Virus record (IMG/VR): IMGVR_UViG_3300010354_000461
Span: 1-28,258 of that record
DNA: 28,258 nucleotides
From: a virus
Strand: one strand, 5' to 3'
Shown here: positions 8,301-28,258 of the stretch, one piece after another
Layout of the letters: every line of letters starts with the position of its first letter
Numbering within the stretch: the first letter of the stretch is position 1
Made by a program: the position numbers and the translations under genes
Notes under the pieces: model-generated
The model's input: the letters and a program-made list of their open reading frames with translations, nothing else
Database searches by the model: none
Told to the model about the DNA's origin: nothing

Positions 8301-9302
8301 AGTCCTTCAGCAGAATTCCCAGAATTTGCTAGTGTTTTAGATATTAATAATTTCTATCTTGGAGATAATATCTATCACGCCGAAGCAGCACTTCTTTGGG
8401 TGAAAGAGAAATTGAATTCTTACATGAGTTCTGTTGGTATTGCAAAATCAGTTTCAAGAGTCTATACATTTGGACACTCTCAAGGAGGATATTTGGTGCA
8501 TAGGTTAAACACTATGCATCCTGTTGATGGAGTTATTTCAAATGCCCCAGGTCCAATTGATCTGTTAGACAGATGTTCTGGAGTAGCACAAACTTCTACC
8601 TATACTTGCAATAAAATTGGAGTCGGAATAGGAACAACTTTATCAAATCCAGATGCATATGACTCTCGTTCTCTCAAGAGTTACTTATCGGGAACTTTAT
8701 CACCAACATTGTTTACTCAAGCATTAGATGATGATGCATATCAAGTTAACTTGATGCAAACAGTGTTTCAGCCTGGTATTAGTACTTGCACTGAATATGG
8801 TCCAATCCAGTTTAATTACTATACATCTGGAGGACACACATCATTTGCTACAAGTTCTTTTGTTCAAAGAGATGTTCGTAATTATATTAATTCTGGATAT
8901 ACTGGTTCATATACTTTCTATAGTGTTGGAATAGGGACCACAAATCCATCAAGTGCTCTTGAAGTAAATGGAACAATTAAAGATTCTATTGGAAATGTCC
9001 GTGCTCTTCCACAAAATTCTGTTGGTGTTGCATATACACTTGCAGTAACTGATGTTGGAAAGCATGTTGCAATTACAACTGGTGGCATCACAGTTCCTCC
9101 ATCAGTCTTCAGTATTGGTGACAATGTAACTGTCTTTAATAACTCTGATTATAATCAAATGATTACTCCAGGTAGTGGCGTAACTCTTAGACGTGCTGGA
9201 GTTGGAGATACTGGAGCAAGAGGATTGAATGGATATGGATTAGCAACAATTCTTTGTATTAATACAAATAGTTTTGTAATTACTGGGGCAGGGTTAACCT
9301 AA
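5367..9302 (+). CDS. Tail fibre protein with an embedded alpha/beta-hydrolase domain
   Basis: This 1311-residue protein opens with a segment typical of marine T4-like structural proteins (NDGTGDSLLQAG.KINSNFGEIY). Two shaft-like arrays of a 9-residue repeat (AGIATYAPT type) follow at residues about 49-221 and 322-399. Next come GVGTTNP...L.V.G units and paired VSG(I/V)STFAGITTVTG repeats. Residues about 865-1183 do not look like fibre. They read as an alpha/beta-hydrolase: strand-HGT at 926-928 (candidate oxyanion loop), FGHSQGGY with nucleophile Ser1038, acid candidates Asp1121-1123 and GGHTSF with His1157. A GIGTTNPSSALEVNG unit resumes the fibre at once, and the protein ends in a common phage C-terminus (GLATI...VITGAGL). 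The likely role is host recognition plus ester or peptide-type hydrolysis at the cell surface; the substrate is unknown. The stop overlaps the next gene's ATG (TAATG), suggesting coupled expression with a second hydrolase. Confidence 0.82.
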   Translation: MAKLGINTGITPNDGTGDSLLQAGIKINSNFGEIYSAIGDGTNITNSIAYATLAGVATYAPTAGIATYATTAGITTNASYATLAGFATAASSATNATNATNATNATYATTAGIATYATTAGIATYAPTAGIATYAPTAGIATYAPTAGIATYATTAGIATYAETAGIATYAPTAGIATYAPTAGIATYAPTAGIATYATYAETAGIATNATYATTAGVTTNIIGGVQGSVPFQSATDQTSLLAPGISGYVLISNGSGQNPTWGPVSSATAFFGGITVQDEGVTVGTANSVSTLNFVGPNVVAIANTGAGGISTITISDYVSIAGVATYAPTAGIATYAETVGIATYAETAGIATYAPTAGIATYTPLAGVATYTPLAGVATYAPLAGVATYAPLAGISTLSNGLTGTPNIVVGIITASSFRGDGSLLTNINTSQWVSYGLGISTTSNVGVGTTNPLYKFSVSNDATPTFNLENVIADFTGSSQSYTQLNIRNAFPSSAASADLIITSDDGDDTTNYIDLGINNSGFSTSTWTINGPLDGYLYSSDSNFSIGVSSSNKYLSFFVGGTLSSNEKVRINSNGVGVGTTNPTSALTVKGNTSLETLNVSGISTFAGITTVTGPTLFSKQLSVSGVSTFGGTLNSKNITMLDGIFAMNSTADGAVFDMVYSSGTDSFDISWKKTGNLTWYIPTNSKFQFINPGGGALSAKFTSQGSSALYYAGSNKIETSGIGVTVTGVTSTTNLYVTGVSTFAGITTVTGSTLFANQLNISGVTTLGNTIVGGATTQLIVNGDVRITGILTIGSSSITLNGSSNTLNVGSGITFSGNTGQISAGSFIGTSTDSEKLSSQDPCFYTNYNNFYNTPEQVWTNVRQSNVGSGTTITGITSSYTFSSARTVAGVSTNQLTVTGHLYYPTSSYIGPDVDVLVLYHGTIETAGVSPLDAAQTFMNLATIPSGLNIRDKIIFSVAYPQDAIPVWVNSIESPSAEFPEFASVLDINNFYLGDNIYHAEAALLWVKEKLNSYMSSVGIAKSVSRVYTFGHSQGGYLVHRLNTMHPVDGVISNAPGPIDLLDRCSGVAQTSTYTCNKIGVGIGTTLSNPDAYDSRSLKSYLSGTLSPTLFTQALDDDAYQVNLMQTVFQPGISTCTEYGPIQFNYYTSGGHTSFATSSFVQRDVRNYINSGYTGSYTFYSVGIGTTNPSSALEVNGTIKDSIGNVRALPQNSVGVAYTLAVTDVGKHVAITTGGITVPPSVFSIGDNVTVFNNSDYNQMITPGSGVTLRRAGVGDTGARGLNGYGLATILCINTNSFVITGAGLT
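5511..6029 (+). repeat. First 27-base/9-residue tandem repeat array in the fibre
   Basis: The array holds about 18 imperfect copies of a 27-base unit encoding AGIATYAPT, AGIATYATT or AGIATYAET. Inside it, four copies of a 9-base unit (GCCACAAAT) encode a short NATNAT run near 5645-5680. The regular period and small residue choice fit a trimeric fibre shaft. Near-identical copies would allow slippage or recombination to change shaft length. Confidence 0.9.
6328..6561 (+). repeat. Second 27-base/9-residue tandem repeat array in the fibre
   Basis: The same 9-residue period reappears after a non-repeat stretch of about 300 bases. The copies grade from AGIATYAET/APT to AGVATYTPL/APL, so this array has a distinct subfamily (PLAGVATY) at its 3' end. 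Confidence 0.85.
7171..7697 (+). repeat. Pair of direct fibre repeats (STFAGITTVTG unit)
   Basis: Two segments, about 7171-7289 and 7579-7697, encode nearly the same run: VSGISTFAGITTVTG.TLF..QL..SGV(S/T)T(F/L)G versus VTGVSTFAGITTVTG.TLF..QL..SGVTTLG. They are separated by about 290 bases encoding a different, more globular-looking segment. This looks like duplication of a fibre module. Confidence 0.75.
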
Positions 9303-10339
9303 TGGCAATAACAGGTATTCTAGCATCAACTGATAATAATTCTCCAACTATTGGTATTGCATATACAAGCGTTGTTGGTACTGGAGGAACTTCTGGAGAT
9401 TATCAATTAGACATATATCATTTAAATGAAAGATCTAGAGGAAGTCGTCCTGTAGTAATAGGTATTCATGGCGGTGGATGGTGTATTGGTGATAAAAGTT
9501 TATCAGGATTTACAAAATACAAAGCAAACTTTTTTGTTAGAAAAAATAAATGTGTTTATGTTTCTATTAATTATAGATTAAGTCCTGTTGGATTTTTAGT
9601 TGGAGTAGGAACTGCTCTTTGGAGTGCAAGCAGAATTAAATTTCCAGATCATTATAATGATATGGCAATTGCTATTAAATGGATTAGAGATAATATATCA
9701 TCTTATGGTGGAGATCCAGACAAATTGATTTTGATGGGACATAGTGCAGGAGCACAAAGCAGTATCCTTTTAGCAACAAATCATGAATTTATCAATGCTG
9801 TTGGAGTACCAACATCCAGTATTAAGGGTGTTATCTGTGTAGACACTGAAGGTTTTAATATTTTAGATCAAGTTTTAAATCCATCAACAGACACTGATGC
9901 TGGAGATCCTAATCCAAATACTGTAAGAGAAATTTATGAAAATGCTTTTGGGATATATCCAGGAATACACACTGGATTTTTATACCAAACTAAAGATTAT
10001 GCAACTGTTGGTGCAGCAATGTCTGTATATAATCGTGCTTCTCCAGATCAAAACCTTAGTACACCAAACATACCTAAATTGATGATTCTTGGAAGAGGTG
10101 ATTCAGATAGAATGGCTAAAAGTGGTGCATTCTATGCAAGTATGGTTTCTGCTGGAGTTGCGGGTACTTATATTTCTTATCCCAATGCTGTTGATGGTGT
10201 AGTAACAACTTATACTCATGATGAAATATCAGATTCCATTGGTTCCCCAACAGATCCTCCAACTGGAAGATCTTTACCTGTTGGAATAGGAAATGTGAGC
10301 ACGGAAATTATTAATTTTATTTCCAGTCTTAATCTTTAA
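9302..10339 (+). CDS. Stand-alone alpha/beta-hydrolase (esterase/lipase type)
   Basis: This 345-residue protein shows the full signature of the HGGG/GxSxG esterase group (hormone-sensitive-lipase or feruloyl/carboxylesterase-like). HGGGW at residues 56-60 is the oxyanion loop, and an INYRLSP motif follows. FPDHYNDMAIAIKWIRDN...YGGDP is the typical pre-nucleophile helix. GHSAG places the nucleophile at Ser148, Asp267 or Asp269 sits in ILGRGDSD, and His306 is in YTHDE, so the triad is complete. There is no signal peptide or membrane segment. Its ATG overlaps the fibre stop by one base, so the two are probably translated together, and it lies between the gp7-like and gp8 baseplate genes. I infer a virion-associated or late-expressed esterase acting on host surface acyl groups. 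A cytoplasmic metabolic role cannot be excluded, and the substrate cannot be read from sequence. Confidence 0.87.
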   Translation: MAITGILASTDNNSPTIGIAYTSVVGTGGTSGDYQLDIYHLNERSRGSRPVVIGIHGGGWCIGDKSLSGFTKYKANFFVRKNKCVYVSINYRLSPVGFLVGVGTALWSASRIKFPDHYNDMAIAIKWIRDNISSYGGDPDKLILMGHSAGAQSSILLATNHEFINAVGVPTSSIKGVICVDTEGFNILDQVLNPSTDTDAGDPNPNTVREIYENAFGIYPGIHTGFLYQTKDYATVGAAMSVYNRASPDQNLSTPNIPKLMILGRGDSDRMAKSGAFYASMVSAGVAGTYISYPNAVDGVVTTYTHDEISDSIGSPTDPPTGRSLPVGIGNVSTEIINFISSLNL

Positions 10340-25777: not shown

Positions 25778-26659
25778 ATGTCAAATGATGTTTATCTTGG
25801 TAATCCACTCTTAAAGAAGGCAAACACGCCTATTGAATTTACACAAGAGCAAATTCTTGAATTTGTAAAGTGTAAGGACGATCCGGTTTATTTTGCAAAC
25901 AATTATGTAAAAATTGTTACTCTTGATCACGGTCTACAAACTTTTAAACCATATCATTTCCAAGAGAAGTTAATCAACAATTTTCATAATCACAGATTTA
26001 ATATCTGCAAGATGCCACGACAGACTGGTAAGTCTACTACTGTGGTATCTTTTCTTTTGCATTATGCAGTGTTCAATGATAACGTTAATATTGGTATTCT
26101 TGCAAACAAAGCAGCCACCGCAAGAGAACTTTTAGATCGTCTCCAAACTGCATATGAGAATCTTCCGAAGTGGATGCAGCAAGGTATTATCTCTTGGAAC
26201 AAAGGTTCTTTAGAACTTGAAAATGGATCAAAGATCTTAGCAGCATCAACCTCTGCATCTGCTGTCCGAGGAATGTCATTCAACATTCTGTTCTTGGACG
26301 AATTTGCATTCGTTCCAAACCATATTGCAGATTCCTTCTTTGCATCTGTTTATCCTACTATTACTTCTGGTAAACAAACAAAAGTTATTATAGTTTCCAC
26401 GCCACACGGTATGAATCATTTCTACCGAATGTGGCACGATGCTGAGAAAGGAAAAAATGAATATGTTTTCACTGATGTTCATTGGAGTGAAGTTCCTGGA
26501 CGTGATGAAGAATGGAAAAAACAGACAATTGCCAATACTTCAGAACAGCAGTTCAAAGTTGAGTTCGAATGTTTAAGTGGAGAAACCAATTTAGAAATAA
26601 TGAATGATGATGGTAAAGTAGAAACTATTACCATGGAAAATTTATATGAAAGAATGTGA
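25778..26659 (+). CDS. 17: Terminase large subunit gp17, ATPase half, fused to an N-terminal split intein
   Basis: Residues 1-264 are the N-terminal motor domain of gp17, which drives ATP-powered DNA packaging. PRQTGKST at 80-87 is the Walker A loop (Lys85), ILFLDE at 170-175 the Walker B strand (Asp174, catalytic Glu175), and STP at 207-209 the coupling motif. The extein ends ...FKVEFE. At Cys265 the sequence changes to a 29-residue N-intein (CLSGETNLEIMN..., then KVETITMENLYERM) that stops at TGA 26657-26659. Cys265 is the expected splicing nucleophile. The missing nuclease half is encoded separately from 27251 behind the matching C-intein. The two pieces should splice in trans to give a full gp17. 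The gene is therefore not simply truncated or frameshifted. Confidence 0.96.
   Translation: MSNDVYLGNPLLKKANTPIEFTQEQILEFVKCKDDPVYFANNYVKIVTLDHGLQTFKPYHFQEKLINNFHNHRFNICKMPRQTGKSTTVVSFLLHYAVFNDNVNIGILANKAATARELLDRLQTAYENLPKWMQQGIISWNKGSLELENGSKILAASTSASAVRGMSFNILFLDEFAFVPNHIADSFFASVYPTITSGKQTKVIIVSTPHGMNHFYRMWHDAEKGKNEYVFTDVHWSEVPGRDEEWKKQTIANTSEQQFKVEFECLSGETNLEIMNDDGKVETITMENLYERM
26570..26656 (+). other. N-intein coding segment (29 residues)
   Basis: The segment runs from the Cys265 codon (TGT 26570-26572) to the last codon before TGA. Cys1, the short GET.LEI.NDDGK strand pair and the I.MENLY helix correspond to splicing block A and the start of an intein fold. The short length places the split close behind block A, before block B, as in atypically split TerL inteins, and unlike DnaE-type inteins, which split near the endonuclease position. 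Confidence 0.92.
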
Positions 26660-26670
26660 GTTCCTAGGAT

Positions 26671-26688: not shown

Positions 26689-27258
26689 ATGTATTATATT
26701 TACTTTCTTAAAGATTTGAATGAAAAGGTTCAATATGTTGGACAAACACGGAATTTAAATGCTAGAAAAAGAGAACATAAAAGAAATAAACCTCCTCATA
26801 AGTTTGAAATAAAGGAAAAGACAGAAATTCCAGAAGATGCTAAAGAATTAGAAATTTTTTATATAGAAAAATTCAATACTTATAAAAAAGGATGGAATAG
26901 AACTCCAGGAGGAGAAGGATTTGATGGATATGATAGAGATGGAATTGGTGGTGCTAAAAAAGGAAGCATACCTTGGAATAAAGGAATAAAAAATTGTTTC
27001 TCAGAAGAAACAATAAAAAAGATGAAAAAAACCAGAAAGGGTAGAGTTTTTAGTAGAAAAATTAAAGATGAGCAAATAATAGAGATAAGAAAACTATATA
27101 ATGAACAACCATTTTTACAAGATGTTGGAATGACTATGAAAAATGGAAAAACAATGTCTTATATTCAGGCGTTTTGTAAAGAATATGCTAAAGATTATAA
27201 TTTAACTCCACAGGGATTAAAAAAAATTATATTAAATGAATGTTGGAAAAATGTTTAA
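26689..27258 (+). CDS. Free-standing GIY-YIG homing endonuclease with NUMOD-like DNA-binding tail
   Basis: This 189-residue protein opens with MYYIYFLKD...VQYVGQTRNLNARKREHKR. The YIY and YVG triads (residues 3-5 and 16-18), an Arg-rich helix and Glu in LEIFYIEKFNTY (about residues 54-65) make up the GIY-YIG nuclease fold. GWNRTPGGEG at 68-77 closes the domain. The C-terminal half carries a NUMOD3-like motif (GSIPWNKGIK, then SEETIKKMKKTRKG) and a helix-turn-helix-like QIIEIRKLYNEQ, which usually bind the target DNA. It lies in a different frame from the two gp17 halves, and its last bases overlap the C-intein ATG by 8 bases, so translation of the C-half may be coupled to it. It should cut intein-free terminase genes and spread the cassette. 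Activity is inferred. Confidence 0.92.
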   Translation: MYYIYFLKDLNEKVQYVGQTRNLNARKREHKRNKPPHKFEIKEKTEIPEDAKELEIFYIEKFNTYKKGWNRTPGGEGFDGYDRDGIGGAKKGSIPWNKGIKNCFSEETIKKMKKTRKGRVFSRKIKDEQIIEIRKLYNEQPFLQDVGMTMKNGKTMSYIQAFCKEYAKDYNLTPQGLKKIILNECWKNV

Positions 27259-27559
27259 ACTTAACAAAAATATTAAAGTAAAAACTCCTAGTGGATTTAA
27301 AGATTTTTCCGGAATTCAAAAAGTTTATAAACCATATTATCATTGGATTATATTTGATGATGGTTCCGAAATAAAATGTTCGGATAATCATTCATTTGGT
27401 AAAGAAAGAATTAAGGCATCAACAATTAAGGTTGATGATTTTTTACAAGGAAAAAAAGTAGTATATAATGAAATAGTAGAAGAGGGAATATATCTTTATG
27501 ACTTACTGGATGTTGGTAAGGATAATCTATATTATTCCAATAATATAGTATCACATAAC
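27251..27559 (+). other. C-intein coding segment (103 residues)
   Basis: The segment begins with its own ATG and ends at the Asn103 codon AAC (27557-27559), just before TGT for Cys+1. His102-Asn103-Cys104 is the standard C-terminal splice junction, needed for Asn cyclisation. The long C-part and short N-part together give about 132 residues, the size of a mini-intein lacking any endonuclease domain. Confidence 0.93.
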
Positions 27560-28258
27560 TGTGAATTTCTTGGATCAGTTGATACTTTGATTGCACCATC
27601 AAAGTTAAGGAGTCTCGTATATGACCACCCAAAGACCAGCAGCGGCGGTCTAGACGTTCATGATGATGTTCTAGACAATCATGATTACTTAATCACTGTA
27701 GACGTTGCTAGAGGCGTAGGAAACGATTACTCAGCGTTTACTGTGATTGATATCACATCGTTTCCACATCAAATTGTTGCAAAGTATAGAAACAATGAAA
27801 TAAAACCAATGCTTTTTCCAAGTGTCATTGTTGATATTGCAAAAAATTATAATAATGCATATATTTTATGCGAAGTAAATGATGTTGGAGATCAAGTAGC
27901 ATCAATCATACATTATGATTTAGAATATACTAATCTACTAATGTGTTCAATGAGAGGTAGAGCGGGGCAAATAGTTGGACAAGGATTTTCTGGAAAGAAA
28001 ACTCAACTTGGTGTAAAAATGTCTAAGACTGTTAAAAAAGTCGGATGCCTCAATCTAAAAACTATGATTGAGGAAAGCAAACTCATTTTCAAAGATTATG
28101 ATATTATGAGTGAACTTACTACATTCATTCAAAAACATAATTCCTTTGAAGCAGAAGAAGGTTGTAATGATGACCTTGCAATGTGCTTAGTAATTTATGC
28201 GTGGTTGGTTGCTCAAGATTATTTTAAAGAACTTACTGATCAAGATGTAAGAAAAAGA
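27251..28258 (+). CDS. 17: C-intein fused to the gp17 terminase nuclease half, runs off the window
   Basis: The frame starts at ATG 27251, inside the end of the endonuclease gene, and stays open for 336 codons to the window edge. Residues 1-103 are the C-intein: FKDFSGIQKV and HWIIFDDGSEIK strands, a block-B-like SDNH (44-47), an IYLYDLLDV block F and a terminal IVSHN with Asn103. Cys104 is the +1 extein residue. Residues 104-336 are the gp17 C-terminal nuclease: CEFLGSVDTL, then VDVARG (Asp151), LCEVND (Glu208) and NDDLAM (Asp308), the three metal-binding acids of the RNase H-like headful nuclease. As I remember it, the C-intein closely resembles AceL-TerL. Only a little of the protein's 3' end should be missing, judging from T4 gp17. 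Confidence 0.96.
   Translation, partial: MFKLNKNIKVKTPSGFKDFSGIQKVYKPYYHWIIFDDGSEIKCSDNHSFGKERIKASTIKVDDFLQGKKVVYNEIVEEGIYLYDLLDVGKDNLYYSNNIVSHNCEFLGSVDTLIAPSKLRSLVYDHPKTSSGGLDVHDDVLDNHDYLITVDVARGVGNDYSAFTVIDITSFPHQIVAKYRNNEIKPMLFPSVIVDIAKNYNNAYILCEVNDVGDQVASIIHYDLEYTNLLMCSMRGRAGQIVGQGFSGKKTQLGVKMSKTVKKVGCLNLKTMIEESKLIFKDYDIMSELTTFIQKHNSFEAEEGCNDDLAMCLVIYAWLVAQDYFKELTDQDVRKR

What the first reader, a model, noticed from the sequence alone, without database searches (positions are those of the whole stretch)
26689..27258. GIY-YIG endonuclease, rather than an internal LAGLIDADG domain, as the mobility partner of a split intein
Inteins usually carry LAGLIDADG or HNH domains inside the intein. 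Here the nuclease is a separate gene of GIY-YIG type with a NUMOD-like tail, placed exactly in the break. As I recall, the first reported fractured genes carried a Vsr-like nuclease family, so this pairing may be less common. It suggests an intein split followed by, or caused by, invasion of a free-standing endonuclease.
Basis: partly seen in the sequence, partly recalled or inferred. Interest (0 to 1): 0.75.

Follow-up and report, generated by a model that had tools for sequence, protein, structure and literature searches.

The report
Mobile split-intein cassette with self-regulating nuclease
A T4-like phage DNA-packaging gene is broken in two by a split intein with a homing-nuclease gene in the gap; that pairing is known and is almost fixed at this site, but just before the nuclease gene there is a conserved copy of the nuclease's presumed target beside a promoter, which looks like a built-in off switch.

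Summary
In detail: gp17/TerL N-half plus 29-aa IntN, a 189-aa GIY-YIG/NUMOD3 gene, then 103-aa IntC plus C-half. The intein belongs to the known AceL-TerL/GOS-TerL (Cat) atypical split-intein family. The claim that the GIY-YIG pairing is unusual fails: of 52 distinct occupied loci, 48 carry an intact GIY-YIG, 1 a truncated one, and 3 lost it yet stay split. GIY-YIG fractured genes are already published (AceL NrdHF) and annotated at this same TerL site (Aeromonas phage PX29). Homing is well supported: precise empty sites in all 80 nearest TerL genes, near-identical occupied/empty pairs, nuclease dN/dS about 0.17. The unexpected part is the nuclease's 5' flank. It carries a copy of the intein-free target (E|CEFLG; 16/19 in the window, 19/19 in a distant lineage) abutting the window's only TATAAATA late promoter. 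Although untranslated in that frame, the copy varies only where the exon is synonymous (20 of 20 differences), and it supplies the stop codon that breaks the intein. This is the layout of the I-TevI operator, so I propose an I-TevI-like autorepressed nuclease gene whose insertion split the intein. Binding, cleavage and repression are untested.

The parts
25778..26569 (+). gp17/TerL N-extein (ATPase half)
   Evidence: Pfam PF03237 E 4.7e-24; 90.5% identical to Synechococcus phage S-SCSM1 terminase; 100% aa identity to intein-free loci L093-L095
26570..26659 (+). IntN, 29 aa (CLSGETNLEIMNDDGKVETITMENLYERM) and its stop codon TGA
   Evidence: homologous position in all occupied loci; short N-fragment as in AceL-TerL (25 aa) and Cat (30 aa)
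26652..26670 (+). copy of the intein-free target (GAATGTGAGTTCCTAGGAT vs exon GAATGTGAATTTCTTGGAT): proposed operator; contains the stop codon that ends the N-half
   Evidence: best 19-mer match in the 28-kb window on either strand, 16/19, all three mismatches at codon position 3; conserved in 60 distinct flanks; 19/19 in L232
26671..26678 (+). TATAAATA, T4-type late promoter element abutting the target copy
   Evidence: only copy in the window, 4.4 expected in shuffles; conserved in nearly all relatives
26689..27258 (+). free-standing GIY-YIG/NUMOD3 homing endonuclease gene, 189 aa
   Evidence: conserved Y5, Y16, G18, R26, E55, N70; dN/dS about 0.17
27251..27559 (+). IntC, 103 aa (MFKLNKN...NNIVSHN); ATG overlaps the nuclease stop by 8 nt
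   Evidence: (PDB 6dsl E 1.8e-56)
27560..28258 (+). TerL C-extein (CEFLGSVDTL..., RNase H-like nuclease half), cut by the record end
   Evidence: Pfam PF17289 E 3.4e-14

Best explanation
This is a mobile cassette, IntN - operator/late promoter - GIY-YIG gene - IntC, inserted at a conserved codon junction (E|CEFLG) of phage TerL. The two TerL halves are translated separately and joined by trans-splicing (inferred from close similarity to tested AceL/GOS/Cat-TerL inteins). The GIY-YIG protein binds the intein-free junction through its C-terminal NUMOD3/helical part, probably cuts on the N-extein side, and repair copies the whole cassette (homing; inferred). The same binding part also recognises the copy of its target next to its own late promoter, which lacks the N-extein side, so it shuts off its own transcription without cutting, as I-TevI does at its operator (inferred). 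Because the operator copy brings in the stop codon that ends the N-half, arrival of this nuclease module is what split the intein; later loss of the nuclease leaves the intein split.
For: Shown here: exact architecture and family matches. 48 of 52 distinct occupied loci carry an intact GIY-YIG, 3 lost it and remain split. 80 of 80 nearest TerL genes have the precise empty site, up to 100% N-extein identity. At least 10 changes of occupancy on the extein tree, with near-twin occupied/empty pairs L178/L157, L222/L152, L004/L147. Nuclease dN/dS median 0.166. Operator: 16/19 match, rank 1 in the window for that target. In L232/L233, where GIY is 52% identical and TerL 43-59%, the flank holds an exact 19-nt copy of the spliced junction, against at most 14/19 elsewhere in that locus, while other fractured loci give only 11-13/19 in the flank. 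Flank 89% identical where GIY four-fold sites are 49% identical. Intergenic positions 9-19: 20 of 20 differences fall at positions synonymous in the exon, Spearman 0.93 with exon variability. TATAAATA once in the window. In 2.9 million viral contigs, operator+promoter occurs in 86 stretches; all 80 checked lie between TerL-N and GIY, bar contig ends. Precedent: I-TevI operator, 15/20 match to its homing site overlapping a late promoter, bound but cut about 100-fold less (PMC2988022).
Against: No biochemistry: binding, cleavage, repression and trans-splicing were not tested. The target copy has one origin in the sampled clade, so its conservation is not many independent events; the two lineages that share it are themselves related. 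Other GIY-YIG TerL cassettes (PX29, PSTRCR_127, VP-1, K469) lack the copy, so it is not a general rule. Co-conversion around the site was only suggestive (p = 0.097, 6 pairs). I-TevI's zinc finger is not evident here. Over all 19-mers spanning the junction, one unrelated site in the 28-kb window also reaches 16/19, so the window alone would be weak evidence.
Confidence: 0.72

Rival explanations
1. Same mobile cassette, but the target copy is only a scar of the recombination that put the nuclease gene into the intein, without regulatory function.
For: The copy begins at a GAATGT shared by the intein (AGA-ATG-TTT) and the exon (GAA-TGT), a plausible recombination point, and supplies the stop codon that splits the gene. 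Similarity of ORF flanks to a homing site was read as an invasion trace for I-TevII in sunY (Loizos 1994, via PMC3984707).
Against: A scar should decay like four-fold sites (49% identical) but stays 89% identical and varies only at exon-synonymous positions. The commonest form (TTTTTTGG) is not a sequence seen in the sampled exons, so it is not simply being recopied. In an invasion scar the upstream flank should resemble the upstream exon half; here it is the downstream half.
Confidence: 0.17
2. The nuclease gene is a domesticated part of the packaging module rather than a homing enzyme.
For: Phage HNH proteins next to terminases can act in packaging (discussed in PMC10448857); the gene is intact and under purifying selection.
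Against: All 80 nearest TerL genes lack it together with the intein, and 3 split loci lost only the nuclease. Occupancy flips between near-identical TerL genes.
Confidence: 0.06
3. The conserved flank is simply the late promoter for the C-half of TerL, and its likeness to the exon is fortuitous.
For: TATAAATA is conserved, and GIY and IntC overlap by 8 nt, so one transcript could serve both. gp41-type fractured loci also carry a late promoter, in a hairpin, without an exon copy.
Against: A promoter does not explain an exact 19-nt copy of the exon junction in L232 or exon-synonymous variation. Nuclease-less loci lost the promoter too.
Confidence: 0.05

Closest known systems
AceL-TerL / GOS-TerL / Cat-TerL atypical split inteins (Thiel 2014, Bachmann 2015, cited in PMC11766414)
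   Same: Same host gene, same short-IntN/long-IntC split, IntC matches the Cat consensus at E 1.8e-56.
   Different: No difference that matters for splicing was found; whether the original reports describe a nuclease in the gap could not be read here.
Fractured genes (Dassa et al. 2009) and AceL NrdHF (PMC7891396)
   Same: Gene broken by a split intein with a free-standing nuclease gene between; in AceL NrdHF the nuclease is also GIY-YIG.
   Different: AceL NrdHF splits at the usual nuclease site (98+48 aa, class 3); here the split is 29 aa into the intein and a target copy precedes the nuclease.
Aeromonas phage PX29 genes 17A/17B (GU396103) and Providencia phage PSTRCR_127
   Same: Split intein at the same TerL junction with a GIY-YIG nuclease.
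   Different: SegE-type GIY-YIG (PF19835), fused to IntC in PX29; no target copy found in the flank.
I-TevI in the T4 td intron
   Same: GIY-YIG nuclease with a copy of its homing site beside its own late promoter (PMC2988022); catalytic-domain fold.
   Different: I-TevI is in a group I intron, with proven autorepression and a zinc finger; here the host is a split intein, no zinc finger is evident and no assay has been done.

Membership tests
Fractured gene with split intein (Dassa 2009 type) | Conserved enzyme gene broken by IntN and IntC fragments | tested here: met
   precise empty sites in relatives
Fractured gene with split intein (Dassa 2009 type) | Free-standing endonuclease gene between the halves | tested here: met
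   48 of 52 distinct loci intact
AceL-TerL/Cat atypical split intein | Short IntN (25-37 aa) and IntC of about 104 aa in terminase large subunit, Cys1/Cys+1 | tested here: met
   29 + 103 aa, C1 and C+1; family values
AceL-TerL/Cat atypical split intein | Trans-splicing activity | not testable with these tools
   Inferred from E 1.8e-56 match to CatC
GIY-YIG homing endonuclease | GIY-YIG catalytic domain with conserved Tyr, Arg, Glu, Asn | tested here: met
   PF01541 in 27/27; Y5, Y16, R26, E55, N70 invariant; fold match
GIY-YIG homing endonuclease | Site-specific cleavage of the intein-free allele | not testable with these tools
   Only indirect: empty sites, patchy occupancy, purifying selection
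I-TevI-like autorepressed endonuclease | Homing-site copy adjoining or overlapping the nuclease's promoter | tested here: met
I-TevI-like autorepressed endonuclease | Protein binds the copy and represses transcription | not testable with these tools
   Indirect only: exon-synonymous variation of the untranslated copy
I-TevI-like autorepressed endonuclease | Zinc finger in the linker as distance ruler | tested here: not met
   No Cys pair of zinc-finger type among the conserved residues; so it is not filed as an I-TevI family member, only as working like it

The most novel reading that the evidence does not exclude
A split intein whose homing nuclease both caused the split and regulates itself through a target-site copy: the operator is at once the binding site, the promoter's neighbour and the source of the stop codon that fractures the host gene. 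This would be the first such autorepressor in an intein system that I know of (memory; the key fractured-gene papers were not held).
Probability: 0.6. Interest if true: 0.7.

Novelty: new variant of a known kind. Interest (0 to 1): 0.57.

Why it matters
It replaces a loose claim about nuclease families with a testable account of how inteins become split: a nuclease module carrying its own operator inserts, brings a stop codon, and the intein stays split even after the nuclease is lost. It also gives a sequence signature (target copy plus late promoter) from which a homing nuclease's binding site can be proposed without biochemistry, and it would extend the I-TevI style of self-restraint from introns to inteins.

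Tried and rejected
Group I intron or other structured RNA: no Rfam match. Target copy as a general feature of fractured genes: not found in gp41-type loci, Walker A or Walker B TerL loci, PX29, PSTRCR_127, VP-1 or K469. Co-conversion test: inconclusive. Sequence search of the PDB with the nuclease profile gave only a weak UvrC hit. tblastn of the nuclease against cultured phages at 1e-5: no hit. The first codon-variation test used a pattern that fixed some positions and was replaced by an unfixed extraction. S-SKS1 looked as if it matched into IntN, but its annotated TerL is one intact 1,647-nt gene. Search with the L232 IntC found no further distant loci. Dassa 2009 and Bachmann 2015 were not held.

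Full report
OBSERVATION. The ORF at 26689-27258 is real and is a GIY-YIG nuclease (PF01541 E 9e-6); all 27 aligned relatives match, 15 also NUMOD3, and the model resembles UvrC and I-TevI catalytic domains, though with weak E-values. It lies between TerL N-extein+IntN (25778-26659) and IntC+C-extein (from 27251), all on the + strand. IntC matches the solved consensus atypical split intein CatC (6dsl, E 1.8e-56), so the intein is of the AceL-TerL/GOS-TerL family (25-37 aa IntN, about 104 aa IntC; PMC11766414). No known structured RNA is present. The window is an IMG/VR viral fragment; TerL is nearest to Synechococcus T4-like phages.

A scan of 2.9 million viral contigs with IntC returned 80 loci; wherever the gap was visible it held the same nuclease, 66-92% identical, except L035 and L060. 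Pooling all scans and removing duplicates: 52 distinct loci, 48 intact, 1 truncated (L203, 95 aa), 3 without nuclease. The three without (L060/L334, L035/L359, L327) remain split, and L035 keeps what reads as the 3' end of the nuclease gene, so the nuclease can be lost without rejoining the intein. At the same TerL junction other phages also pair a split intein with GIY-YIG: PX29 (fused to IntC), PSTRCR_127 (free), VP-1 and K469 (fused to IntN). VP-1's nuclease shares the C-terminal part with the window's (27% over 150 aa), whereas PX29 and PSTRCR_127 carry SegE-type domains, so more than one GIY-YIG subfamily has been used there. At other TerL sites different nucleases occur: LAGLIDADG in cis or a DUF559/Vsr-like split version at Walker A, a TnsA-like nuclease at Walker B in HY03/TG1. 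GIY-YIG with split inteins is prior art: PX29 annotation and AceL NrdHF (PMC7891396). The novelty argument of the finding therefore falls.

MOBILITY. The 80 TerL genes nearest by N-extein all have a precise empty junction. On a tree of the exteins (113 rows) occupancy needs at least 10 changes, and near-identical TerL genes differ in it (L178/L157, L222/L152 and L165, L004/L147). The empties were sampled by closeness to the window, so this count is not a population frequency. The nuclease is under purifying selection (median dN/dS 0.166; IntC 0.082; extein 0.089). A co-conversion signal on the N-extein side was only suggestive (p = 0.097).

THE FLANK. Between the end of IntN and the nuclease ATG lies GAATGTGAGTTCCTAGGAT-TATAAATA. 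The first 19 nt match the intein-free junction GAA|TGTGAATTTCTTGGAT at 16/19; the three mismatches are all at third codon positions. It is the best match to that target on either strand of the window, although over all junction-spanning 19-mers one unrelated site also reaches 16. TATAAATA occurs once in the window against 4.4 expected. In the distant lineage L232/L233 (GIY 52%, TerL 43-59%) the flank contains TTGAGTGTGAGTTCTTAGG, an exact 19-nt copy of its own spliced junction, while the rest of that locus reaches at most 14/19, and flanks of other fractured loci reach 11-13/19. In 60 distinct flanks there are 17 forms of the copy; at intergenic positions 9-19, where the copy is not translated, 20 of 20 differences lie at the five positions where the exon is synonymous and none at the six others; per-position variability correlates with that of 46 empty exons (Spearman 0.93). 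These differences are not all independent events. Between pairs whose nuclease four-fold sites are 49% identical the copy is 89% identical. Operator plus promoter occurs in 86 stretches of the whole collection, and of 80 checked all lie at TerL-N/GIY, apart from contig ends.

READING. PMC2988022 describes the same layout for I-TevI: a 15/20 copy of the homing site overlapping the late promoter, bound as well as the homing site, cut about 100-fold less because the cleavage motif is missing, and used for autorepression; the I-TevI binding part covers about 20 bp centred on the insertion site. Here the copy also spans the insertion site and lacks most of the N-extein side. The simplest account is that one protein reads both sites and tolerates the same third-position changes in both. 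The stop codon that ends the N-half lies inside the copy in both lineages (TGTGAG read as ATG TGA in the window; TTCTTAGG read as TCT TAG in L232), so insertion of operator-promoter-nuclease is what broke the intein. The order expected of a pure insertion scar (upstream flank resembling the upstream exon half) is not seen. Established here: architecture, prevalence, empty sites, conservation and its pattern. Inferred: binding, cleavage, repression, homing, splicing.

VERDICT. Known kind of locus and a known nuclease pairing, with a new regulatory feature that merits a bench test.

Noticed in passing
window 9302-10339: Alpha/beta hydrolase gene (carboxylesterase PF00135 E 8e-23; PHROG 'esterase') among tail and baseplate genes of the T4-like virion region.
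   Followed up: no
L005, L013, L015, L039, L061 (cis) and L017, L019, L044 (split), TerL Walker A motif PRQTGK|S: A second TerL intein site: contiguous inteins with LAGLIDADG motifs, or a split intein with a DUF559/Vsr-like nuclease, truncated in L044, in genes that also carry the GIY-YIG cassette.
   Followed up: partly
L236-L285, gap between gp41-1-type IntN and IntC: Highly conserved GTAAGTTATACTTCTTATAAATAATAGTAGTATAACTTAC: a late promoter element inside an inverted repeat at the start of the gap, without an exon copy.
   Followed up: partly
L084 (HY03), L089 (TG1), L088 (JK32), L091 (K469), L082 (VP-1), L092 (PSTRCR_127): Cultured T4-like and Vibrio phages with gp17 fractured by split inteins, several deposited only as 'hypothetical protein' plus terminase; usable for experiments.
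   Followed up: partly
L087 (Vibrio phage vB_VmeM-32), 1102-3216: TerL ORF with what reads as two inteins, a C-fragment at the Walker A end (start of the record) and a contiguous mini-intein at Walker B.
   Followed up: no
L085 (Campylobacter phage CPX), 2995-4323: TerL C-half begins with an IntC although the preceding annotated genes are not the N-half, so the N-half must lie elsewhere or is unannotated.
   Followed up: no
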